From positions 1-64,000 of the forward strand of contig CP046866.1 of the NCBI GenBank assembly GCA_009789175.1: 64,000 bases of DNA, given 5' to 3'. Made by a program: the position numbers and the translations under genes. Each line of letters begins with the position of its first letter. Position 1 is the stretch's first letter. Source of the stretch: Salinibaculum litoreum (GTDB lineage: Archaea; Halobacteriota; Halobacteria; Halobacteriales; Haloarculaceae). Shown here piece by piece: positions 49,840 through 63,176 of the stretch. Below the pieces are notes generated by a model. That model was not told the DNA's origin. It did not search any database and worked only from the letters and a program-made list of their open reading frames with translations.

Positions 49840-49963
49840 CGTCAGTGGTGTCACTCAGGCATCTCTTGAGTGTGTTCCTCTTCTCACGTGCGAGTCCGGC
49901 GCGCTACAGTACCGGTGTTCGGGCCGTTGCGATTCACTCCTGCAGATGTAGGAAGGGACTTCA

Positions 49964-49990
49964 TGGGTCGGGGCGGATTTGAACCGCCGG
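49964..49990 (-). repeat. tRNA 3'-end fragment, probable attachment site (att) of an integrated element
   Basis: Read on the minus strand, the sequence GGCGGTTCAAATCCGCC (T-arm) is followed by CCGACCCA (3' acceptor strand with discriminator A). The bases upstream do not supply the matching GGGTCGG strand, D-arm or anticodon arm, so this is only the 3' part of a tRNA. It is closest in style to haloarchaeal tRNA-Val. A 3' tRNA fragment next to an integrase gene is the classic boundary left by site-specific integration. The intact tRNA should lie beyond the right edge. Confidence 0.7.
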
Positions 49991-50118
49991 CTTCCCCGCG
50001 CCTTCGGGCGATTACACGCCCTTCGGCGCGCCCGCAGAGCAGGTGATTGGCGGGCAACCGCTCGCCACTCACCACCCCTCGGTCGTCGTCTCTGACGGGC
50101 CGCGGTTCGGGAGCAAAC

Positions 50119-51126
50119 ATGAGTCGAAGCATGACCCCCGAACGCGCGGCTGAACGGTATCTCAAAGAACGCAAGGCCGAAGTCTCGGAATCCACCCACC
50201 GCAACCACAAGTACGCGCTCAAGCGGTTCGTGGAGTGGGCCGATGAGGCCGGGCTGGACGACATCTCGGAGTTGGACGGCTTCCACGTCCACGACTTCAA
50301 GATTCATCGCCGGGAGAACGACGACATCAACGAGGTGACGCTCTACAACAACCTCTGTGCCCTCCGAGTGTTCATCCGCTGGCTGGAATCGGTTGGCGTT
50401 GTCGAGAACGACGTGGCGGAGGACATGATTCTGCCCAACCCCGACGACACCCGCGATGAAAAGATTGAGCCGGACACCGCGGAGGACATCCTCACCTACC
50501 TTCGCAAGTTCGAGTACGCGACGCTCCGGCACGCGCTGTTTGCCCTGCTGTGGGACACCGGCTTCCGACTGGGGACGGTTCGGTCGCTCGACCTCGAAGA
50601 TTACCACTCCGACGAGCAGTACGTCGAGGTGCATCATCGGCCCGATGAGGGCACGGCGCTGAAGAACGGGCAGAGTGCCGAGCGAGAGGTGAACCTCCAC
50701 GAGTGGGTTTGCGAGATACTGGACGACTACATCCAGAGCCATCGCCACGACGTGACTGACGACGCAGGTCGGGAGCCACTACTGACCTCCCGCCACGGTC
50801 GCCCCGTCCGGTCGAACCTCCGCCAGCACATCAACGCAGTCACTCGGCCCTGCCACTACGGAGACGAGTGTCCCCACGACCGCGACGAGGAAACGTGCGA
50901 AGCGGCCTCGCAGTACCGGCGGGCACAACGCTGTCCGTCGTCGGTGTCGCCCCACCCGATTCGGCGGAGCGTCATCACCGCATGGCTGAACGAGGGCCAC
51001 CGCAAGGAACTCATTAGCGACCGCATGAACGTGGGGACCGACACGCTGGAGAAACACTACGATGCCCGGACAGAAAGCGAGAAACGAGAGTTGCGACGCG
51101 AAGCGTTCGAGATGACTGGGGACTGA
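50119..51126 (+). CDS. Tyrosine recombinase/integrase (XerC/D-like)
   Basis: This 335-residue protein has a SAM-like N-terminal core-binding domain (MTPERAAERYLKERKAEVSESTHRNHKYALKRFVEWADEAG). The catalytic domain shows R150 in DTGFRLGTVRSLDLEDY, H279-x2-R282 in HPIRRS and nucleophile Y314 in EKHYDARTE. A Cys/His cluster (CHYGDECPHDRDEETC) is typical of halovirus and haloarchaeal element integrases. The start at 50119 is 129 bases from the tRNA fragment. It should catalyse integration and excision at the tRNA site. Confidence 0.92.
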   Translation: MSRSMTPERAAERYLKERKAEVSESTHRNHKYALKRFVEWADEAGLDDISELDGFHVHDFKIHRRENDDINEVTLYNNLCALRVFIRWLESVGVVENDVAEDMILPNPDDTRDEKIEPDTAEDILTYLRKFEYATLRHALFALLWDTGFRLGTVRSLDLEDYHSDEQYVEVHHRPDEGTALKNGQSAEREVNLHEWVCEILDDYIQSHRHDVTDDAGREPLLTSRHGRPVRSNLRQHINAVTRPCHYGDECPHDRDEETCEAASQYRRAQRCPSSVSPHPIRRSVITAWLNEGHRKELISDRMNVGTDTLEKHYDARTESEKRELRREAFEMTGD

Positions 51127-51467: not shown

Positions 51468-52553
51468 TCAGTCACAACTACCTACTCTGTTTCCATCAAA
51501 GTACTCGATTGCTTCATCTCCAACAACTAACTCCACATCTTTATTCAGTTGAGAGAGACGAGTTAATTCGTCCGTCTCCTTGTCCAGAGCAACCAGAATA
51601 TCTCCCTCTGAGATGTAGTGCCGGTCAATGTGCAAATCCAATGACTTAACGCAACCTCGCTCCTGATATGCATAGTCACACGCATACCGCATAGCATCAA
51701 GAGATTCCATTTCTTTCCTGCCCACGTTCCCTCGTTCTATATATATCGTTGGCTTTGGATAATGCTGGGAGCGTCGGATTGTCTCGTCCCGGTTCGGAAT
51801 CATACGCTCAAATTCGTACTCTTGAGATGTGCTCAGCCCATCTGCGTCAATCCAAGCATCAGAATAACTTTCGTCATCGTAATACTCTCGAAGGTGTTCA
51901 TAGATATTTTGAGCGAACAGAGGATAGACTTCCTGTTCCAAATATCCCATAATAATATCTGCGGCAGAGAGAAGGGGGTACGTCTGGTCTCCGTTGGGAA
52001 CAATATTTAAATGTTCAGACTCATCGCCCAATTCGGACCACATCTTATTATATTTCCCAGTAAAATCATCAGTCAATATGTTTTTTCGAGTTTCCGTAGG
52101 TCTACTATCGTCATTGTCGATATATTGCCAGATGGATACAAGATTATAATATGAAGATAATTTTCCTGTGAGTAGTTCTTGAGCGTTCATTCGATTGTGG
52201 GAGTGGTCATCATCTTTGTAGATGTCAACCCAAGAGGGTTCAAAGTAAGTTTCAGTAATCTGGATAGTCTCAACAGAACTTATATCCAACAAGGAGGTCG
52301 CAATATCGATACGGGCCTCCTGAATCCTCCAATCAGCGACCCATCTGTTAATGTCTTTATTTTTTATAATCTCGAATGGAATTCGAATATCATATTTACT
52401 CTTCTTTTCTGATATTACTTCTTTATAACTTTCATCAAAGTCATCAATATTTTCTACAGCAACGGCGACGGACAGAAGGCTGGCTCCTCCGGGTCGTTCA
52501 CTATCAAATCTCACTACCAACGAATCCGAAGCAACCCAGCCATTGTCAGGCAT
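51468..52553 (-). CDS. AT-rich island gene of unknown function (possible nuclease-like fold)
   Basis: This 361-residue acidic protein is encoded by sequence much richer in A/T than its neighbours. I cannot assign a family. By eye, the start (ASDSLVVRFDSERPGGASLLSVAVAVEN) and the middle (LNIVPNGDQTYPLLSAADIIMGYLEQEVYPL) recall RNase H-fold DUF3800-type proteins, where an Asp ends the first strand and an A-D-x-x-x-G helix carries another acid. The second half (PTIYIERGNVGRKEMESLDAMRYACDYAYQERGCVKSLDLHID) is different and could be a separate domain. It diverges from the HsdR-N nuclease gene and may belong to a defence module. Confidence 0.6.
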   Translation of the reverse strand: MPDNGWVASDSLVVRFDSERPGGASLLSVAVAVENIDDFDESYKEVISEKKSKYDIRIPFEIIKNKDINRWVADWRIQEARIDIATSLLDISSVETIQITETYFEPSWVDIYKDDDHSHNRMNAQELLTGKLSSYYNLVSIWQYIDNDDSRPTETRKNILTDDFTGKYNKMWSELGDESEHLNIVPNGDQTYPLLSAADIIMGYLEQEVYPLFAQNIYEHLREYYDDESYSDAWIDADGLSTSQEYEFERMIPNRDETIRRSQHYPKPTIYIERGNVGRKEMESLDAMRYACDYAYQERGCVKSLDLHIDRHYISEGDILVALDKETDELTRLSQLNKDVELVVGDEAIEYFDGNRVGSCD

Positions 52554-52642
52554 AACTGCCGATTTGATACCACATGAACATAAATTGCAGGGTAAGGAGA
52601 GGCATCATCAATTCATTGGAAGTTCGTGCGGTTTGCACCACC

Positions 52643-52649
52643 TTTTAAA
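52643..52649 (+). promoter_or_regulatory. TATA box of the HsdR-N-like gene
   Basis: TTTTAAA ends 25 bases before the ATG at 52675, giving leaderless spacing and supporting that start. Confidence 0.55.
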
Positions 52650-52674
52650 CAGGTTCGATACGGACTGCCTCACA

Positions 52675-53856
52675 ATGGATAGGGACGAGATTGACGAGTA
52701 CGTCCAGCGGTGCCAGCAACTCATCGAATCATCACCGCAGATGGACGAGGAGAACACGAAGGTCAAACTCGTTCAGCCGTTTCTCGAACTCCTCGGGTGG
52801 GACCTCTACTCTACGGAAGTCGCACTCGAATACACTATCCCGATGGCCTCGGGAAGCACTCACGTCGATTACGCCCTCCTCGTGGGGGATTCTCCGGTGG
52901 TGTTCGTTGAGGCCAAGCCAGTCCGGTCCACGCTCACCGACGACGAAGTCCAGCAGTTGCGGAGTTACATGAGACAAGAACTCGACGTGGACTGGGGGAT
53001 TCTGACCAACGGGAAATCCTTCGAGGTACTGACCAAGAACCGCCAGCAGAACGGCGGTGAAGAGGTGTCCGTCGTTCAGTTTGACCTCGATGACCTCGCC
53101 GAGAACCCGGATGTGCTGGAACTGCTCACCAAGGAGTCGATTCGGTCGGGGAAATCCGACGAGGTCGCCGAGCAGGTCGCGCAAACGAACCGAGCAATCC
53201 GCCACCTGCAAAGTAACGAGGACAGCGTCACCGAGTCCGTGACCGAAGCCGTAGAGAGCGAGGTAGGCGACCTCACCATCGACCTCGAAGAACAGTCTCG
53301 GGAGTTCGTGCAGAGTCTCGTCTCTGTACTCCGCGAACAGCGCCACTTCGTCAGTGAGGAGCCACCGAGTAATAGCGAGCAGGGCGAGGAGAAACCCGAT
53401 GACGCCGCTGACGAGATTGAGCCGCTTGAGAATCAGGTAGTGGGCAAAATCGCGCGGAAGGACATAGAAGGCGACCCTGACGCTCGGGTTGCCGTGTTCC
53501 CTACCAAGGAGTCAGGACTCCCCTTCCTGAAAGAGAACGAGGCGTGGGGATTCGTCCGTGTCGGTAGCGAGTTTGATTATGTGGCGATGTACGTTACGGG
53601 CGACGTTCGAGAAGTGAAGTATTTCGCTACGGTTGACGACGTAGTCAAACCCGAAGAAGCCGACCTGATGCGGAATCCGCTGGACTACAAGGATAGGGCG
53701 AAGATTGCGGACGACAAGATGGTCGTGACGTTCGAGCCGGGGACGCTCTACGAACTGGAAGACCCAGTCCCCTACGAGAACAAATACCCGCAGGGACTTC
53801 GATACACAACCCTCGGCAAATTGAGGGACGCAGAGACGACGGATGATATGCTCTAA
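52675..53856 (+). CDS. Stand-alone HsdR-N-type PD-(D/E)XK nuclease-domain protein
   Basis: This 393-residue protein has an N-terminal type I restriction HsdR-N-like nuclease domain: VKLVQPFLELLGWDLYSTEVALEYTIPMASGSTHVDYALLVGDSPVVFVEAKP. The catalytic triad D65, E79 and K81 is complete. The Q-rich helix (DDEVQQLRSYMRQELDVDWGILTNGKSFEVLT) follows as in the family. The middle is a Glu-rich helical linker. The C-terminal ~150 residues form another domain (GKIARKDIEGDPDARVAVFPTKESGLPFLKENEAWGFVRVG...DYVAMYVTGDVREVKYFATV). No helicase motifs are present. Its role may be restriction with the methylase downstream, or independent defence. Confidence 0.8.
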   Translation: MDRDEIDEYVQRCQQLIESSPQMDEENTKVKLVQPFLELLGWDLYSTEVALEYTIPMASGSTHVDYALLVGDSPVVFVEAKPVRSTLTDDEVQQLRSYMRQELDVDWGILTNGKSFEVLTKNRQQNGGEEVSVVQFDLDDLAENPDVLELLTKESIRSGKSDEVAEQVAQTNRAIRHLQSNEDSVTESVTEAVESEVGDLTIDLEEQSREFVQSLVSVLREQRHFVSEEPPSNSEQGEEKPDDAADEIEPLENQVVGKIARKDIEGDPDARVAVFPTKESGLPFLKENEAWGFVRVGSEFDYVAMYVTGDVREVKYFATVDDVVKPEEADLMRNPLDYKDRAKIADDKMVVTFEPGTLYELEDPVPYENKYPQGLRYTTLGKLRDAETTDDML

Positions 53857-53936
53857 CGGATTGATTATCTCACCTTTCACCTGACTGTTTGTGCCCGATG
53901 AGCCGGCGAGCGTAGCCGACCGAGTCCACCGAACCG

Positions 53937-54923
53937 CTACGATTCACCCCCTGACTTCGTGTGGAAGGATGACGCGGAGTCGAAACTCGTGAGGTCGTCA
54001 ATCCGGTCTTCTAACTCCTCGATTTCCTTTTGCAGTTCCTCGGTGTCTTCGTCGGCGGCGGCCAGTTGGTCTTTCAGCCCTTGGAGGCGCGTCTCTTTTT
54101 CGTCTTCGTCAACCTCGGCTTTGCGGACGTATTCGCTCTCCTCTATCTCGTACACGTCTGACTCGGAGAGTTCCGTCACTTCCAGCGCGTCGTCTACCTT
54201 GCTGGCGTCTACGCTGGTTACGCGCTCGCGGCCGATACCAGCCGCTTCCAGCGCGTTGAGGACCGTCTCCTCGTCTTTGAGCGAGCGGTTGCGCCGCGTG
54301 GTCCGCTGGACCGAGCCGAACTGCCCGCTGACGGGCCGGTCGTGATGAAGCCGGTCGAGTAGAATACTCCGAACGTCCTGCCGAAGGTCGTTGGCGTTGC
54401 GCTGTACGTCTGAAAGAAGCGTGTAGAGATTTACCAGCGCGGGCGTCTCCATGCCTTCGAGGTCGGTGGGGTCGTGGCGTTCGAGCGCGTCAATCAGCAA
54501 GAGTGCGTCGGCGTAGACGGGGATGTCGGGTTCTTCGCGCTCGCCGGTCGTCTCCTCTGAGGGCTGTGCCTCTACGAGTGGCGACCCTGTCGGTGTCTCT
54601 GACTCGGCGAGCGTTCCCTCGCTGTCGTCCAACTCGAAGCGTGGATGCAGACTCAACACGGTGGCGTAGGGTTCGGCGTCCGGCGGCAGACGGTCGAGGT
54701 CGAACCCATCGTGGGCGTCGTTGACGCGCTGGAACAACGTCTCGAACTGGTCGCGCTGGAGTGGGCGGGTTTCGTCTTTGTCCTCGAACTCGATGACGAC
54801 GCGGTGCTCTTGCACGTCCGTCACGCGAAACGACTTCCGCGAGAGCGGTGTGTAGAGGGTCGCATCGTCGGCCACCTCCTCGACGTTATCGAGCAAGTTG
54901 TGCCAACTCGTACTGAAAGACAT
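53937..54923 (-). CDS. Coiled-coil protein beside the Type IIG gene, function unknown
   Basis: This 328-residue acidic protein starts MSFSTSWHNLLDNVEEVAD. The N-terminal ~90 residues form a beta-rich domain (TLYTPLSRKSFRVTDVQEHRVVIEFEDKDETRPLQRDQFETLFQRV). A helical core (PVYADALLLIDALERHDPTDLEGMETPALVNLYTLLSDVQRNANDLRQDVRSILLDRL) follows. The C-terminal coiled coil (RLQGLKDQLAAADEDTEELQKEIEELEDRIDDLTSF) ends the protein. I believe very similar genes recur next to Eco57I-like methylase genes in haloarchaea, which would make it a dedicated partner, but that is from memory. It diverges from the Type IIG gene. Confidence 0.7.
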   Translation of the reverse strand: MSFSTSWHNLLDNVEEVADDATLYTPLSRKSFRVTDVQEHRVVIEFEDKDETRPLQRDQFETLFQRVNDAHDGFDLDRLPPDAEPYATVLSLHPRFELDDSEGTLAESETPTGSPLVEAQPSEETTGEREEPDIPVYADALLLIDALERHDPTDLEGMETPALVNLYTLLSDVQRNANDLRQDVRSILLDRLHHDRPVSGQFGSVQRTTRRNRSLKDEETVLNALEAAGIGRERVTSVDASKVDDALEVTELSESDVYEIEESEYVRKAEVDEDEKETRLQGLKDQLAAADEDTEELQKEIEELEDRIDDLTSFDSASSFHTKSGGES

Positions 54924-55036
54924 ATGCCAGCGTTGACCGCCGTAGGGCAAAAGACTGCGGACGACCTTCGCCGTCTTCCCAATCCTTAACCCGTATTGCT
55001 CGGTTGGATTGAAACATCCCTTTCCGAGGACGAGAT

Positions 55037-58000
55037 ATGCCCCCTGCTACAACATCTACCTCGCAGACTGAGTTCGTTCAGGAAGCGTTCGAGACAAGCG
55101 TTGAAGACGAGTCTGAGTTGCGCCTTCTGGAGGCGATTGACGACGCCGTCACGCGACTTCGAGAGCAGATTGACGACGACACGCTCGAAGAAATCCTCCG
55201 AGCAGACGCCGGTTCGTATCGGCTCCGCAGCGACATGACCCGCGACGGACTCCAACCCGAACCGTTCACTCAACAGGCCGTCATCGAGCCGCTTCTCACT
55301 GAGTTGGGTCACGAGTTCGATACCGAAGCGGGCGGCCTCTCGGGCGGTCGCACGATGGTCGCCGACTACACTGTCTCTCTGCGGGACTACGATACCGATT
55401 CGACGCGGCTCCTCATCGAAGCCGAACCCATCAACAAGGACCTACACTCCCGCGAGCACGGCATCGGGCAGGTCCGCGACTGGCTCAGTCAACGCGAGTT
55501 CGAGTCCGACTTCGGTTTCGCCACTGACGGCCTCCGGTGGGCCTTCGTTCGCTACGACCCGGACTCCTACACGCACAACGTCATCGAAGAAGTGGACCTC
55601 CAGCCCGTGTTCCTCGCCCTGTTCGAGAACCAAGTCGGCAAACAGGAACCGCTCGATGAGGCGGTCTTCGATGCCGACCGTAACCGTGTGACCCGCCTCC
55701 TGCGGACCTTCGAGTTCGAGAACTTCGTCTCTATTGCTGTCGAGGCCCGGCAGGTCATCAAGCGAACGCAGGAAGAAATCACCGACGAGTTCTACGACGA
55801 CTACATCCGCTACGTCTTCGGCATCGTCGGTGAAGACGAAGAAACAGCCCGCTCGCTCATCGGTGACGGCGTGGTCAGGCCCGATGAGGCCGCGGAGGAC
55901 GACGCCCGACTGTTTGCCGTCGAGTTGATGAATCGGCTCATCTTCATCAAGTTCCTCGAAGACAAGGAAATCGTTCATCCTGACCTCTTGCTGACTCTTA
56001 AGGACACCTACGAGGACGGGATGTACACCGGCTCGCTCTACGACGAGTTCATCCAACCGCTGTTCTACGACGTGATGAACGAGAAGCCGAACAAGCGGCC
56101 TTCGACCGTGCAGGACATCGACGTGTTCGAGGACATCCCCTACCTCAACGGTGGGTTGTTCCGTCCGTCTATCGGCGACGGCGAGGAGTTCGATGAAGAA
56201 GACTTCGATGTTCGGAACTCTGTACTGTTCTCCATCATCGACCTCTTGGAGGCGTACAGTTTCTCGGCGGGCGGTTCGCCGACCGACCTCGACCCGAGCA
56301 TCCTCGGGAACGTCTTCGAGAAGACTATCAACTACATCACCAGCGACAACGCGGACAAGAACAAGGAACTCGGGGCCTACTACACACCGAGCGAAATCAC
56401 GCGGTTCTGTGCGGAGGAGACAGTCCGACCCGCCCTGCTCGACCGCTTCGAGCGGGTCCTGATTGAGGAGTGCGACTGGCCCGAGCACGAAGCCGAGAAG
56501 TTCGACTCGGTCTACGAACTCATCGAAGGACTTCCCGGCCACTGGAGTTCCGTCAGTGCGCTCCTCGCCGAAGTGGACGAGTTCCGTGTTGTAGACCCGG
56601 CCTGCGGGAGCGGCCACTTCCTTACGTCCGTTCTCGAAGAAATCGTCAACATCCGCAAGGCGCTGTACGCACAGAACGACTCATATCCCGACGAGTACCG
56701 GCTCAAGAAGACGACGGTCCTCAACAACATCTACGGCGTGGACTTGGTCGGACCAGCCGTCGAAATCGGGAAACTCCGGCTGTGGCTCTCCATCATTTCG
56801 GAACTGGAACAGGAGGACGTTGACGACCTCGATGACGACGACCTCGCGCTTCCGAACATCGTGTTCAACCTCCGGGAAGGGAACAGTCTTATCGGATACA
56901 CGGGCTTCCCGGAGACGACTGACAACGGCGAGTACACGCTCGGCAGTTTCAGCGAAGACAGCGTCCGGGACCGCTACCAAGACATCATCGACGAGATAGA
57001 AAAACACGAGGAAGCGGTGGATAGTGACGTGGCCGAGGAGCATCGTATCAGGGCCTTCGAGAAACTACGCAACGCGAGAGAGGAACTGATTAGCGACATC
57101 CACGGCGATTTCGTAGAGGCTGGCATAGACGGGTTGACAAAAGATGATGTTGAGAGGATGCAGCCTTTCAATTGGGTTCTTGAATTTGCGGAAGTTTATG
57201 CTGACGGTGGTTTTGATGTTGTAGTTGGAAATCCACCATGGGACCGGATTAAAGCGAATAGAGACAACTTCTTTTCCCGCTATGATTCAGACTTTAGGAC
57301 ACTTTCAACAACTGAGAAGGATGAACGCCAGAAAGAACTTCTTCAAGATTCAGAGATAGCGAGCAAGTGGGAGCAATATCAGCGCCAAAAGGAGGTCCAA
57401 TCGAAATACTTCAACGAAGGAGAAGCCTACACGAAACAGCGAGCAAAAATTGGGGGAAGAACACAGTCTTCAGAGAACGACCTATCATCGCTATTCTTTG
57501 AGAGGGTATTCGAAATTGCGAGACAAGATGGATTCATCTCACAGGTCCTACCCGGACGTATCTTCCATGGAGCACCGACAAAGACGCTACGTCAACATTT
57601 GTTGAACGAGTCTACGGTAGAATCGCTCGTTAGTTTTGAAAACCATGGCATATTCGAAGATATTGACAACAGATACAATTTCGGCGTAGTGACCTTCGAG
57701 AATCAAGGACGAACAGAAACTTTGAAAGGGATATTCCAGACTACGGACTTAGAGATACTACAAGAACCAGATGAACATCTGATTGAGATTCCACGGGAGG
57801 TACTTACTAATTTTGCACCTTCGTCACTTCTGTTTCCTCGAATCCAGTCTGAAGCAGATGTTGGTGTGTTGGAGACAGCAGTATCATATCCTGCTGTAGG
57901 AGATAAAAGTCGGGAGTGGTACGCAAACCCGTTCTACCCCCTTCACAAAACCAGTGACAAAGACCGATTTTTCGACAGTCCAGGCGGATGTGACTATGAA

Positions 58001-58885
58001 ATTCTAACCGGTAGGAACTTCTTCCAGTTTTCGCATGACCCTACCTTTTACGAGGATATTGACCCGCCGTTTCAGTGGAGTGTAGATGCAGAAAAGAACC
58101 CCGAGAGAAGCGCCAAACAACGGATTCGTGAAAAGAAAGTTAGGGACCTAAAGCGTGAGTTGTTTGACCATTTCGACGGGTCTGGGTCGATGAAAGGGTT
58201 TGTAAACGAACTATTACAAGATGCCCGGGATTCTCCTCTCTTGCCAGATGATGTCCTTTTACCGTCTACGGAATATCGGATTGGCTTCCGACGAGTCGCA
58301 AGGGGTACAGATGAGCGGTCTATGATTTCCGCTGTGGTGCCACCGGGGCCAGTGTGTGATTACAGTTTCTACGTAGTCGAACCGTTTGAAATCAAACCCT
58401 CAAAAGACGACTTGACTGACTCACCACTCCACGGGGTTTATGAGAATATCTTTTCTGACGAGGAGTTGTTCGTCGCTACAGGCTTGTTCAATAGTCTACC
58501 ATTTGACTTTCTCATCCGAAGGAAAATTGACAACAGTATCCCAATCTACAGTTTCAAGGAAACACAGGTCCCCGACCTGACCGATGGGGATGAGTGGTTC
58601 GAGTACATCTGGACGCGAGCCGCCCGGCTGAACTGCTACGGCGAGGAGTTCGAGGAGATGCGCGACCGGCTCGGTGACATCGAACCGGCGACCGAGATGG
58701 ACGAGCGCCGTGAGATTCAGGCCGAACTTGACGCCGCGGCGTTCCACGCCTACGGCCTCGACCACGAGCAGACGGAGTTCGTTCTCGATGACTTCCACCG
58801 TGTCCAAGACCCGCGGCTGATGGACGAGGACTACTTCGAGATGGTGCTGGAGAAGTACGAGATGCTTTCGAAAGGTCAAAATTGA
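55037..58885 (+). CDS. Type IIG-like restriction-modification protein (Eco57I/BREX PglX-like methylase)
   Basis: This 1282-residue protein has an N-terminal HsdR-N-like domain whose active site reads D110...E128-A-E130, with Glu in place of the usual Lys. A helical region follows, then an N6-adenine methyltransferase: motif I VVDPACGSGHF (D520-G526) and motif IV GNPPWDRI (N732-W735). The C-terminal part (about 850-1175) should be the target recognition domain, ending in a helical tail. It probably methylates adenines and may cleave unmodified DNA. The segment 57130-58565 (residues about 698-1175) is visibly AT-rich, whereas the ends match the GC-rich genome, suggesting replacement of the specificity region by recombination. 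Confidence 0.87.
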   Translation: MPPATTSTSQTEFVQEAFETSVEDESELRLLEAIDDAVTRLREQIDDDTLEEILRADAGSYRLRSDMTRDGLQPEPFTQQAVIEPLLTELGHEFDTEAGGLSGGRTMVADYTVSLRDYDTDSTRLLIEAEPINKDLHSREHGIGQVRDWLSQREFESDFGFATDGLRWAFVRYDPDSYTHNVIEEVDLQPVFLALFENQVGKQEPLDEAVFDADRNRVTRLLRTFEFENFVSIAVEARQVIKRTQEEITDEFYDDYIRYVFGIVGEDEETARSLIGDGVVRPDEAAEDDARLFAVELMNRLIFIKFLEDKEIVHPDLLLTLKDTYEDGMYTGSLYDEFIQPLFYDVMNEKPNKRPSTVQDIDVFEDIPYLNGGLFRPSIGDGEEFDEEDFDVRNSVLFSIIDLLEAYSFSAGGSPTDLDPSILGNVFEKTINYITSDNADKNKELGAYYTPSEITRFCAEETVRPALLDRFERVLIEECDWPEHEAEKFDSVYELIEGLPGHWSSVSALLAEVDEFRVVDPACGSGHFLTSVLEEIVNIRKALYAQNDSYPDEYRLKKTTVLNNIYGVDLVGPAVEIGKLRLWLSIISELEQEDVDDLDDDDLALPNIVFNLREGNSLIGYTGFPETTDNGEYTLGSFSEDSVRDRYQDIIDEIEKHEEAVDSDVAEEHRIRAFEKLRNAREELISDIHGDFVEAGIDGLTKDDVERMQPFNWVLEFAEVYADGGFDVVVGNPPWDRIKANRDNFFSRYDSDFRTLSTTEKDERQKELLQDSEIASKWEQYQRQKEVQSKYFNEGEAYTKQRAKIGGRTQSSENDLSSLFFERVFEIARQDGFISQVLPGRIFHGAPTKTLRQHLLNESTVESLVSFENHGIFEDIDNRYNFGVVTFENQGRTETLKGIFQTTDLEILQEPDEHLIEIPREVLTNFAPSSLLFPRIQSEADVGVLETAVSYPAVGDKSREWYANPFYPLHKTSDKDRFFDSPGGCDYEILTGRNFFQFSHDPTFYEDIDPPFQWSVDAEKNPERSAKQRIREKKVRDLKRELFDHFDGSGSMKGFVNELLQDARDSPLLPDDVLLPSTEYRIGFRRVARGTDERSMISAVVPPGPVCDYSFYVVEPFEIKPSKDDLTDSPLHGVYENIFSDEELFVATGLFNSLPFDFLIRRKIDNSIPIYSFKETQVPDLTDGDEWFEYIWTRAARLNCYGEEFEEMRDRLGDIEPATEMDERREIQAELDAAAFHAYGLDHEQTEFVLDDFHRVQDPRLMDEDYFEMVLEKYEMLSKGQN

Positions 58886-60211
58886 CGATTGTGGGATTTA
58901 GTCCGATTCACCATCCCCGCCGACTCCTCTATTCGCGAGGGTGGAGAGTACGCCCCACGTTGCTCTGAGCGCCCTCAGAATCGGCTTGAGTTTTCCACGA
59001 TGTTTCCCCTTTACGCACCTCGATTAGTCCATGAGACGAGGCGTAGGGCGGCTCATGCAGGTGTGCGCCCACGTGCAGTGTGCCGCTCCCCACCACGGGC
59101 TTTGCTCGGGGATGGAACTGTGGGTAGTTACCCGTGTTCTCTTACCCCTCTAACGGGTTCCCTTCCGATGACGCCGCCGGGTATTTACTGCGGGCTATTG
59201 CGGGAATCGGTCCCCGAGGGCTGGTTCACGGGGTCTGGAACACGGGGACTAAACCACAGAAAAACAGTACACGCACCGGCCTCATCGGCAAAGAACACGG
59301 AGGGGTTTAGCACAAGGATTAGGACCACAACAACTACCCAGTGAGTAGTCACCCTCAGTAACTACCCAGTAGGTCATCCCCTTATGGGAAACCACCCTTA
59401 GTTAACCCCCTTTGTATTTCCCCCTTACAGCGAGTTGACAAGATTCCGAACACCGGACTACCTCTCCCACACAGGGCAGTGTTTGTAAAACTCCGAGATA
59501 ATAAAACACGTGTCCAGTTACGGTGTCCTCTGAGGTTCCCGAAACGTGCTACTCTGTGCTTGATAGTCACCGCGATGGACGCCTGATTGACTCTGGACTG
59601 CGGGTCCATCTTCGATGACGGCGGGCATGACGACCAAGTGGTGATGTGAGGGCCAAGACTGAGACGGCACCAACCTCTCCTCGAAGTGATGCTGGCCGCA
59701 CAACAGTTGGAGTCCCTCTCTCAGACTAACGCCCCTCGAAATCCCGGCGATACAGGCGGTCTTCGGCCCGAGGATTGGACCTGTTGTCTCCGTTCACGAA
59801 ACCCCCACACTTCGAGGTCTTCAAACAGCCCTCCAGAATCGAAATCTACTGCTGTACTTCGGTTCGGGGGACAGCGGTCCGTAGTTGGCGTCGGTGGGGG
59901 TCGGAGAGCCTGACGGTGGTCCAGTCCGGTTCCCAGTGTAGCCCGAGCCACGCTGTCAACTCCTCGGAGTTGTATCACAGGCGGACGAGCCGCGAAGGTC
60001 GGCGTTGCTTTGCTGTCGTGGGGGACACAACTCACCGATAGTAAACAACTATGCGGTAAGCAGAAAACCTCACTCCCACCTCCGCGCGGCGCACTCAACT
60101 GCTGACCGGCCAGTGGCGAGACTCACGAGTGGGAACGACCAACCGCTACCCTGAAACAATCGCCTGTTGCATCGGACCCTGTTGATTCTCTCGTTGCCGC
60201 ATAGTTGTTTG
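58886..60211. other. 1.3-kb gene-free stretch with repeats, possible origin or control region
   Basis: Open frames here on both strands lack the acidic composition of real genes in this window, so I call none. Two direct repeats AACTACCCAGT occur at 59332-59342 and 59360-59370, with GGGTAGTTACC at 59124-59134 as a related reverse copy. Near the right end, a 21-base motif TAGYAAACAACTATGCGGYAA occurs as an inverted pair (60039-60059 and 60194-60214). The repeats, the lack of genes and the adjoining plasmid-type gene suggest a former replication origin or recombination region. Confidence 0.4.
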
Positions 60212-60214
60212 CTA
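60039..60214. repeat. Inverted repeat pair flanking 134 bases
   Basis: The plus-strand copy at 60039-60059 and the minus-strand copy at 60194-60214 agree at 19 of 21 bases (TAGYAAACAACTATGCGGYAA). The right copy contains the TAG stop codon of the gene at 60212-61087. They could be recombination or Rep-binding sites. Confidence 0.6.
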
Positions 60215-61087
60215 CAAGTCGGCAACGCCCCTGCTCGTTCGGAACCACCGATAGGGACTCACCCATGCGAGAACTCCGCCCTCAAGCAGTGTCTCAGATG
60301 GGTCTTCCCGTTGGCTGTTGTAGTAGTCCCCGACTGGGAGATGTGCGAGTTGTTGGGCAACGAACTTCGCTCCTCTCGTATTTGGTCGGCCCGGTGCTTC
60401 GCTCACCTCTTGAATCTGGAAGAAGTCGGCGGGAGGACTGGATACGAGTGGCGGCGAGTGCGCGACAGTGATAGCACCTGCGCTTCCGTCATCCTGATAC
60501 GTGTGATTCTCCGCGTAGGCGTTGTCACATCCTGAGAGGTGTTTCTCCAGTGCTGGTGCCAAGTTATCGGTCGAGACCTCGTTTTCGGGGTCATCTATCC
60601 AGAGGTAGATGTATTCCCGAGGCGTTCCCGTGGTTAGTGTGACGCTTGTCACAGCCACCCACTCGAAACCAAGTTCCAACTTGTCTTTCAAGTGATAGTC
60701 AAGTGCCGAGCGAACACGTTGACGAACGGTTCCTCCGTTCAGCATCTCATCAAGTTCCCACGGTGTTAACCGCTCGCCTGTATCATCCAGAGGTGACACT
60801 CCTCGTGTGAGTTTGGCCGTCGTTACATCCTCGTATTGCTCTTGGAGTCGGCGGTCTGTCTCAAGAATCTGGGGATAGCACTGCTTGAGGTGGCGCATAT
60901 GCTTCGAGGTACGACCCTCAGTATTCCACGCATGGCGCTCTATCCGAACGTACGTCTCCCGCGCCTCATCGAGCGGAAGCGGTCTATCTCCATCGCTCAA
61001 CAGGTCAGGGAGTTCATCAACATCGACTGAGGGAGGGGCCAAAGGTCGAGATTGGTCAGAGTCGGAAGCCGAGCCGTCCGTAGTCAC
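60212..61087 (-). CDS. Plasmid/element-type protein, possibly replication-associated
   Basis: This 291-residue protein uses GTG as start. Distinct stretches are ARETYVRIERHAWNTEGRTSKHMRHLKQCYPQILETDRRLQEQYEDVTTAKLTRGVSP, TPWELDEMLNGGTVRQRVRSALDYHL, and FEWVAVTSVTLTTGTPREYIYLWIDDPENEVSTDNLAPALEKHLSGCDNAYAENHTY. The style matches proteins I associate with haloarchaeal plasmids and integrated elements, some thought to be replication initiators. The REYIYLW position could correspond to an HUH-type H-x-H strand, but the histidines are missing here. The function is uncertain. Confidence 0.6.
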   Translation of the reverse strand: MTTDGSASDSDQSRPLAPPSVDVDELPDLLSDGDRPLPLDEARETYVRIERHAWNTEGRTSKHMRHLKQCYPQILETDRRLQEQYEDVTTAKLTRGVSPLDDTGERLTPWELDEMLNGGTVRQRVRSALDYHLKDKLELGFEWVAVTSVTLTTGTPREYIYLWIDDPENEVSTDNLAPALEKHLSGCDNAYAENHTYQDDGSAGAITVAHSPPLVSSPPADFFQIQEVSEAPGRPNTRGAKFVAQQLAHLPVGDYYNSQREDPSETLLEGGVLAWVSPYRWFRTSRGVADL

Positions 61088-61755: not shown

Positions 61756-61980
61756 TCACTCGCTGAGGAACCAAATGAGGGAGTTGCCTGCCATCTTCGA
61801 TTCCACCGCGCCCTCATCGCGCAGTTGCTTCAAACGGTAATCAGCCGTCCGACGAGGACACCCGACGGCGTCGGCTACCTCGCTGGTCGAAGCCGGTTCG
61901 AGTTCGCTGACAGCGTCTCTAAACTCGCTGTCTTCGTACTTTCTGCGTGCGTCCGCACCCGGATTATCGGAGTCAGTCAT
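61756..61980 (-). CDS. Small winged-helix DNA-binding protein
   Basis: This 74-residue protein (MTDSDNPGADARRKYEDSEF...) has a clear HTH: FRDAVSELEPASTSEVADAVGCPRRTADYRLKQLRDEGAVESKMAGNSLIWFLSE, i.e. helix, recognition helix and beta wing ending in an aromatic/hydrophobic strand. It resembles the MarR/ArsR-like mini-regulators of haloarchaeal plasmids and viruses. It diverges from the 62146 gene pair, and two inverted repeats lie between them, so it probably regulates that region and itself. Confidence 0.78.
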   Translation of the reverse strand: MTDSDNPGADARRKYEDSEFRDAVSELEPASTSEVADAVGCPRRTADYRLKQLRDEGAVESKMAGNSLIWFLSE

Positions 61981-62145: not shown

Positions 62146-62307
62146 ATGTCGAAGTCAACAGTCAGCCGACTTCAGAGTGACGAACAGTCCCCTGCAAACG
62201 ACGATACCTGTCCGAACGGGGAGGAGTGGTGCCCCGGCCCTGACGGCGACGACCTGCCGTGTTTCGACTGCTTCGAGGTCCCCGACGAGCGGGGTGATGC
62301 TCGATGA
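62146..62307 (+). CDS. 53-residue Cys-rich small protein
   Basis: This small protein reads MSKSTVSRLQSDEQSPANDD, then a Cys cluster (DTCPNGEEWCPGPDGDDLPCFDCFEVPDE) and ends GDAR. The cysteines C-x6-C...C-x2-C could bind zinc. Its stop overlaps the start of the 290-residue zinc-finger gene (ATGA), a strong sign of translational coupling and hence of a genuine gene. The function is unknown; small Cys-rich proteins before zinc-finger genes fit a viral or plasmid regulatory cassette. Confidence 0.72.
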   Translation: MSKSTVSRLQSDEQSPANDDTCPNGEEWCPGPDGDDLPCFDCFEVPDERGDAR

Positions 62308-63176
62308 CCGACCGGGACCGCGACTCCCACGAGAACGACGAGCGGACGGTTCGGTGCCCGGTCGAAGGGTGCGACTCCGAGCAACTGGCCCGTGCGCTCC
62401 ACCTTCACGTCCGGCAGTCGAAGGGCGACGGCCACGGCCCGCGCGGCGAAATACCCGACGACGTGTCGCTTGATGACGCCGAGACGGTTGGCACGGAGAC
62501 GGTCGAAATGGAGTACCCGACCGAGCGCGACACCGAACAGGAGGCCCGGCTCTGTCCGTACTGCGGGCAGACGTTCACCGGGAGCCACGGTGTGAAAATC
62601 CACCTCGGGCAGGTCGCCGGACGGCACAACCATCCCGAAGACGCCGCGGACGAACACGAGCCGGAGGACTTCCCCCGCGTGACGGTGGACGACGAGGAGA
62701 ACGTCGTCGGCGTCATCGGACGCAAACACGGGGCCACGGACACCGAGGTCGAGTCTGCAATCCCCGCCGACCGCGTCTACGAGTTCATCGCCGAACTGCT
62801 GGCCGACGACCGACAGGCAGAGGCACAGCGTGTCCGAAGCCGCCTGCTCGCTGGCACGACCGATACGACGCTGTTCCCTCTGTCACCCGCCTACGAGTGG
62901 GTTATCCTCGAAGCCCGCTCGAAGACGCTCCGTGAGGGGCTGGCCGCGAAACTGGATGCCGACGGCGTTCACATCGAGTGGCGCGGGAAGACCGAGACGC
63001 TGGCGAGCGACGAGGTCCGGGACCTTGCCGCGAAGTTGGAAGAACGGTCCAACCGGGTGAACGCGCTGGACGACGACCTGCCCGCCCTCATCGAGTGGTT
63101 GCGCGACGCGGCGGAGGTGCTGGAAGGAGAGGAGACTAAGGCACGACAGTTCGGTGGAAATCAGAGCGGGCGTTGA
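62304..63176 (+). CDS. Zinc-finger element protein, function unknown
   Basis: This 290-residue acidic protein has two C2H2-like zinc fingers. The first is RCPVEGCDSEQLARALHLHVRQSKGDGH (residues about 17-45) and the second LCPYCGQTFTGSHGVKIHLGQVAGRHNHPE (about 83-112). The remainder is helical with no familiar motif (YEFIAELLADDRQAEAQRVRSRLLAGTTDTTLFPLSPAYEWVILEARSKTLREGLAAKL). Such proteins are frequent in haloviruses and integrated elements and probably bind DNA. It overlaps the 53-residue gene by 4 bases. Confidence 0.72.
   Translation: MTDRDRDSHENDERTVRCPVEGCDSEQLARALHLHVRQSKGDGHGPRGEIPDDVSLDDAETVGTETVEMEYPTERDTEQEARLCPYCGQTFTGSHGVKIHLGQVAGRHNHPEDAADEHEPEDFPRVTVDDEENVVGVIGRKHGATDTEVESAIPADRVYEFIAELLADDRQAEAQRVRSRLLAGTTDTTLFPLSPAYEWVILEARSKTLREGLAAKLDADGVHIEWRGKTETLASDEVRDLAAKLEERSNRVNALDDDLPALIEWLRDAAEVLEGEETKARQFGGNQSGR

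What the first reader, a model, noticed from the sequence alone, without database searches (positions are those of the whole stretch)
51468..58885. Candidate defence module: unknown AT-rich protein, solo HsdR-N nuclease, coiled-coil partner and Type IIG-like enzyme
Four genes, arranged as two divergent pairs, lie directly behind the integrase. Seen in the sequence: one complete PD-(D/E)XK site (D65/E79/K81) on a protein with no helicase, an adenine methylase with an altered nuclease site, a coiled-coil protein between them, and a 361-residue protein with no recognisable family. Known: restriction and abortive-infection genes cluster in integrated elements. Inference: the stand-alone nuclease and the coiled-coil protein may supply functions that the Type IIG-like enzyme has lost or shares, and the 361-residue protein may be a new effector.
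Basis: partly seen in the sequence, partly recalled or inferred. Interest (0 to 1): 0.7.

Follow-up and report, generated by a model that had tools for sequence, protein, structure and literature searches.

The report
Mobile element carrying unrelated defence genes
The four genes sit in a 14-kb DNA element integrated in a tRNA gene of a salt-loving archaeon; in other genomes they almost never travel together, so they are independent cargo rather than one system, and the best-understood one looks like a single-protein enzyme that joins a DNA-cutting domain to a domain of a kind that reads chemically modified bases, with a reader that has been swapped many times in its relatives.

Summary
The four genes are real, but the four-gene module is not supported. 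They lie in one integrated element: a 33-34-bp tRNA-Val(CAC) 3' end at 49962-49995 is repeated at 64335, 336 bp past the window, where the complete tRNA-Val stands, with a tyrosine integrase just inside. Among 391 haloarchaeal genomes the 361-aa protein occurs in 17, the HsdR-N protein in 229, the coiled-coil protein in 223 and the IIG-like enzyme in 148, yet within 6 kb they almost never meet (only coiled-coil/IIG, 5 of 40 loci). IIG homologues do recur alone in similar tRNA-Val elements (3 of 20). (2) The 361-aa protein matches no family; its model and invariant aspartates suggest a divergent RNase H-fold nuclease. (3) The IIG-like enzyme's altered site (EAE instead of EAK) is invariant in 13 of 13 homologues, so it is not decay. 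(4) The coiled-coil protein is a common, multicopy plasmid-borne gene. All functions are inferred; nothing has been assayed.

The parts
49962..49995 (-). Left attachment site: duplicated 3' end of tRNA-Val(CAC); the second copy, with the whole tRNA gene, starts at contig position 64335, 336 bp past the window end
   Evidence: Exact 34-bp repeat, two copies in the genome, complete tRNA-Val at the far copy, undivided site in the same-genus genome G391
50131..51126 (+). Tyrosine integrase (331 aa)
   Evidence: Pfam Phage_integrase 2e-9, XerC 2.5e-21
51468..52553 (-). 361-aa protein, predicted RNase H-fold nuclease of a new family; AT-rich
   Evidence: No family match; D10, D162, D189, D199, D318 and W142 invariant; AF2 pLDDT 86, pTM 0.88; best meaningful folds RNase H2, NurA, SPARTA Ago, all weak
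52675..53856 (+). HsdR-N-type PD-D/ExK nuclease fused to a C-terminal ASCH/EVE-like domain (393 aa)
   Evidence: HSDR_N_2, catalytic residues invariant in 58 of 58, C-terminal domain model and fold match
53407..53853 (+). C-terminal ASCH/EVE-like (PUA superfamily) domain of the same protein
   Evidence: AF2 pLDDT 92; Foldseek ASCH 5y6b E 5.5e-4, probability 1.00, TM 0.50; no Pfam match
53937..54923 (-). Coiled-coil protein (328 aa), a multicopy plasmid and element gene
   Evidence: phrog_35116 5e-141; 223 of 391 genomes; 69 haloarchaeal plasmids
55037..58885 (+). Type IIG-like adenine methylase with an N-terminal HsdR-N-type domain whose lysine is replaced (E129-A-E131-PIN-K135)
60212..61087 (-). 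291-aa element gene, weak match to a replication protein
   Evidence: phrog_10542 E 5e-4; no match in plasmids or phages
61756..61980 (-). Winged-helix regulator, likely element backbone
   Evidence: HTH_20 1e-7
62304..63176 (+). 290-aa protein at the far end of the element, no family
   Evidence: Coding potential; no Pfam or PADLOC match

Best explanation
The locus is a roughly 14.4-kb element that entered the 3' end of tRNA-Val(CAC) by a tyrosine integrase (shown from sequence). Between integrase and backbone it carries independent cargo. The HsdR-N protein most likely works alone as a modification-dependent (type IV-like) nuclease: the C-terminal ASCH/EVE-like domain recognises a modified base or other feature of viral DNA and the PD-D/ExK domain cuts (domains shown or predicted, action inferred). 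The IIG-like enzyme methylates, and may restrict, on its own. The 361-aa protein is probably an RNase H-fold nuclease acting alone. The coiled-coil gene is a mobile-element hitch-hiker, not a dedicated partner.
For: att repeat and tRNA. No co-occurrence within 6 kb: with class-wide counts and no recurring neighbour. IIG homologues in other tRNA-Val elements with att repeats of 30, 18 and 36 bp. HsdR-N reader fold; catalytic residues; at least 9 reader exchanges on a tree of 58. Precedent: MDREs are often fusions of a PUA-superfamily sensor and a nuclease (PMC7897488), an REase-ASCH fusion is described (PMC10853773), haloarchaeal PUA-wH-HNH enzymes exist (PMC11037411), and halovirus DNA can be modified (HVTV-1, dPreQ1, PMC6884629). 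361 aa.
Against: No activity is shown. The ASCH match is by fold only (TM about 0.5, no Pfam ASCH hit), and ASCH domains can be hydrolases or bind RNA. The homologue neighbourhoods are a sample of the closest hits, so rare associations could be missed. One plasmid (Haladaptatus salinisoli) does carry HsdR-N and IIG homologues divergently, 0.8 kb apart, and one HsdR-N lineage sits beside a methylase in some loci. The 361-aa fold matches are weak (best E 0.04).
Confidence: 0.6

Rival explanations
1. One restriction system: the HsdR-N protein supplies the nuclease that the IIG-like methylase has lost, with the coiled-coil protein as bridge.
For: Adjacent in the element; the IIG site is EAE instead of EAK; a related HsdR-N lineage lies next to an Eco57I-type methylase and PLD-SNF2 helicase in L259, L260, L261 and L263; Haladaptatus plasmid has both genes.
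Against: 0 of 20 IIG loci have the HsdR-N gene and 0 of 20 HsdR-N loci have a homologue of this IIG within 6 kb; a distant 1300-aa relative of the IIG cluster is near in 3 of 20; no helicase in the element.
Confidence: 0.12
2. The HsdR-N protein's C-terminal domain is an RNA or replication-fork sensor, and the protein is an RNA-directed or abortive-infection nuclease rather than a DNA-modification reader.
For: PUA-superfamily domains mostly bind RNA (PMC7641849); the gene can lie in an ordinary metabolic context.
Against: HsdR-N-type PD-D/ExK domains normally cut DNA (established for type I enzymes); reader exchange resembles specificity switching against DNA targets (inference).
Confidence: 0.2
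3. The IIG-like enzyme and its neighbours are decaying cargo without function.
For: AT-rich, variable island; 1.3 kb without clear genes after the IIG gene.
Against: All four ORFs intact; catalytic residues invariant.
Confidence: 0.08

Closest known systems
Modification-dependent (type IV) restriction endonucleases with PUA-superfamily sensors (VcaM4I EVE-HNH; haloarchaeal PUA-wH-HNH such as HhiV4I)
   Same: Single polypeptide joining a nuclease to a PUA-superfamily fold; encoded without a dedicated methylase in most loci
   Different: HsdR-N-type PD-D/ExK nuclease at the N terminus, long helical linker, sensor at the C terminus; sensor closest in fold to ASCH but in no Pfam family; sensor exchanged with an unrelated domain among close relatives
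Type I restriction HsdR subunit
   Same: N-terminal PD-D/ExK domain (HSDR_N_2)
   Different: No helicase motor, no HsdM or HsdS partner in the element
Type IIG enzymes (Eco57I/MmeI type) and PglX-like methylases
   Same: N6-adenine methylase core with motifs DPACGSGHF and NPPW, N-terminal nuclease-type domain, 1282 aa
   Different: The conserved lysine of the ExK motif is replaced (EAE...K) throughout the subfamily; cutting unproven
RNase H-fold nucleases (RNase H2, NurA, Argonaute PIWI; DUF3800 by analogy)
   Same: Acidic residues at the expected places of strand 1, a later strand and a helix; weak fold matches
   Different: No significant sequence or fold match; extra C-terminal domain; not DUF3800 by Pfam or profile comparison
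REase-ASCH fusions coupled to Orc/Cdc6 (PMC10853773)
   Same: Nuclease fused to an ASCH-type domain in mobile neighbourhoods
   Different: No Orc/Cdc6 partner gene recognised in this element; I could not compare the sequences

Membership tests
Type IV / modification-dependent restriction endonuclease | Nuclease domain with intact catalytic residues | tested here: met
   D65, E79, K81 (and E25) invariant in 58 of 58
Type IV / modification-dependent restriction endonuclease | Fused modified-base reader of the PUA superfamily or another reader | tested here: met
   Fold level only: ASCH E 5.5e-4, probability 1.00, EVE and YTH also listed; base binding untested
Type IV / modification-dependent restriction endonuclease | No cognate methyltransferase | tested here: inconclusive
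   No homologue of the window's IIG within 6 kb in 20 of 20 loci, but an adenine methylase is in this element and beside another HsdR-N lineage
Type IV / modification-dependent restriction endonuclease | Cuts only modified DNA | not testable with these tools
   Needs biochemistry
ASCH domain (Pfam, sequence level) | Match to the curated ASCH model | tested here: not met
   No Pfam ASCH hit in any of 33 members
Type I HsdR | Helicase motor fused to the N-terminal nuclease | tested here: not met
   393 aa, no helicase domain
Type IIG restriction-modification enzyme | N6-adenine methylase core in one long polypeptide | tested here: met
   Eco57I 4e-27, REase_MTase_IIG 3e-41; DPACGSGHF and NPPW present
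Type IIG restriction-modification enzyme | Intact PD-D/ExK nuclease in the same chain | tested here: inconclusive
   Homologous domain present but EAK is EAE, invariant in 13 of 13, with a conserved K four residues on
BREX | PglZ and the other core genes next to PglX | tested here: not met
   No PglZ or other core gene among the element proteins scanned
DUF3800 | Pfam PF12686 match | tested here: not met
   None in 19 members; profile comparison probability 0.6 percent, but with only 2 DUF3800 sequences
RNase H-like superfamily | Fold plus catalytic acidic residues | tested here: inconclusive
   D10, D162 and D199 invariant; best fold match RNase H2 probability 0.47, E 0.048
Integrative element in a tRNA gene | Integrase, direct att repeat, intact tRNA at one end | tested here: met
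   undivided tRNA-Val in G391

The most novel reading that the evidence does not exclude
Haloarchaea hold a widespread family of single-protein restriction nucleases whose sensor is an exchangeable cassette: one HsdR-N nuclease body joined, repeatedly and independently, to an ASCH/EVE-like reader, to an unrelated second domain (CT-B) or to a third, giving different recognition of modified viral DNA; and the island also carries a new RNase H-fold effector family.
Probability: 0.35. Interest if true: 0.65.

Novelty: new variant of a known kind. Interest (0 to 1): 0.42.

Why it matters
If right, a gene annotated only as 'HsdR N-terminal domain protein' and matched in 229 of 391 sampled haloarchaeal genomes gains a testable mechanism, and its swapped C-terminal domains give a natural set of candidate readers of modified DNA or RNA. 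The locus also shows how neighbouring defence genes in a mobile element can look like one system while being independent cargo.

Tried and rejected
Four-gene module: rejected by co-occurrence. Coiled-coil protein as an IIG partner: it lies within 6 kb of an IIG-type gene in 2 of 20 and 3 of 20 loci and is widespread, multicopy and plasmid-borne; no tblastn match in the phage collection although its PHROG comes from viral proteins. DUF3800 for the 361-aa protein: no Pfam or profile support. Decay of the IIG nuclease site: rejected because EAE is invariant in homologues. Profile search of genome contigs with the full alignment of the 361-aa family failed for lack of conserved patterns; the narrower one gave 5 haloarchaeal loci, most of them probably seen already. 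Sequence search of the PDB with the 361-aa profile gave nothing useful.

Full report
Observation. The ORFs are present as described. A coding-potential caller trained on the window and loci places the starts at 50131 (integrase), 52675 (HsdR-N), 54923 (coiled coil) and 55037 (IIG); the AT-rich 361-aa gene scores low in that caller but is conserved as a full-length frame elsewhere. The genome is a 3.73-Mb assembly in 3 contigs; the homologues that carry names are haloarchaea.

Where the genes lie. The 3' 33-34 bp of tRNA-Val(CAC) at 49962-49995 recur once in the genome, at 64335, where the complete tRNA-Val stands. A same-genus genome has the tRNA-Val with an unsplit site. The integrase starts 136 bp inside the left repeat. 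So all four genes are inside one element of about 14.4 kb (GC 0.56 against 0.63 on the right flank); its far end carries a winged-helix regulator, a weak replication-protein match and two further proteins.

Do the genes belong together? In a sample of 391 haloarchaeal genomes the 361-aa protein is found in 17, HsdR-N in 229, coiled coil in 223 and IIG in 148. I fetched 18-20 neighbourhoods for each, mostly 16-19 kb and shorter at contig ends. Within 6 kb: 361-aa loci 0 of 18 with any of the other three (3 near an integrase); HsdR-N 0 of 20; IIG 3 of 20 with the coiled coil and 3 of 20 with a related integrase; coiled coil 2 of 20 with an IIG-type gene. No neighbour family recurs strongly. The three IIG-plus-integrase loci are themselves elements in tRNA-Val, with repeats of the tRNA 3' end of 30, 18 and 36 bp. 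The association is therefore element to cargo. The nearest annotated HsdR-N plasmid homologue (Natronorubrum bangense) sits among metabolic genes. Counter-examples: Haladaptatus salinisoli has IIG and HsdR-N homologues divergently, 0.8 kb apart, and a second HsdR-N lineage stands beside a PLD-SNF2 helicase and an Eco57I-type methylase in L259, L260, L261 and L263; those loci were chosen because the genes were close, so they give no frequency.

HsdR-N protein. The N-terminal domain is HSDR_N_2. The C-terminal 149 aa match no Pfam or NCBIfam family but fold with pLDDT 92, and the four PDB matches with E below 0.001 are all an ASCH domain (5y6b E 5.5e-4, probability 1.00, TM 0.50), followed by an EVE-type protein, TRIP4 ASCH-DNA complexes and YTH domains. 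In homologues with 80-90% identical N-terminal halves the C-terminal half can be unrelated. Three N-terminal lineages each occur with the ASCH-like domain (CT-A) or with a second domain (CT-B). On a maximum-likelihood tree of 58 N-terminal domains CT-A changes at least 9 times and CT-B at least 10 times on well-supported branches, 13 changes in all, fewer than in every one of 200 label shuffles (mean 20); the tree cannot say which was gained or lost. CT-A also occurs in short proteins of about 140-190 aa and on other N-termini. Fusions of PUA-superfamily sensors with nucleases are the common plan of modification-dependent enzymes (PMC7897488), so the predicted mechanism is recognition of a modified base followed by cutting. 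This step is inferred.

361-aa protein. Nineteen homologous sequences from haloarchaea share invariant D10 (15 of 15 rows that reach it), W142, D162, D189, D199 and D318. The model is confident (pLDDT 86, pTM 0.88); the matches that make sense are RNase H2, NurA and SPARTA Argonaute, all weak. The gene is AT-richer than its surroundings in 18 of 18 loci. A divergent RNase H-fold nuclease is my best reading. DUF3800 resembles it in motif order, but profile comparison with the two DUF3800 proteins at hand gives no support.

IIG-like enzyme. Its N-terminal domain is homologous to the HsdR-N domain. EAK has become EAE, followed by PINK or PVNK, and this is invariant in 13 aligned homologues, so it is a conserved variant. 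BamHI uses a D/E/E site (my own knowledge), so activity is not excluded.

Coiled-coil protein. It is phrog_35116, present in 223 of 391 genomes, often in several copies, and in 69 haloarchaeal plasmid records, near replication, partition and integrase genes in several of those inspected. It is most simply a mobile-element gene.

Verdict. Real genes, real island, no module; one predicted type IV-like nuclease family with an exchanged reader, and one new RNase H-like family, both untested.

Noticed in passing
L137 4100-13380, L132 6168-16609, L134 4846-13507: Three other haloarchaeal elements of about 9-10 kb in tRNA-Val genes carry the same IIG-like enzyme and a related integrase, with att repeats.
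   Followed up: partly
L259, L260, L261, L263: A second HsdR-N lineage lies beside a 1240-1275-aa PLD-SNF2 helicase and a 1200-aa Eco57I-type methylase, a possible three-gene restriction system.
   Followed up: partly
L271-L277: Two IIG-type methylase genes stand back to back, divergently, in seven genomes.
   Followed up: no
L193-L196: Stand-alone proteins made of the ASCH-like domain alone; in L193, L195 and L196 a roughly 300-aa and a 720-aa ORF lie close by.
   Followed up: no
L042 and L230: One HsdR-N homologue has a third kind of C-terminal domain, related to neither of the two common ones.
   Followed up: no
window 58886-60211: About 1.3 kb of the element without a clear gene; could hold an origin or remnants.
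   Followed up: no
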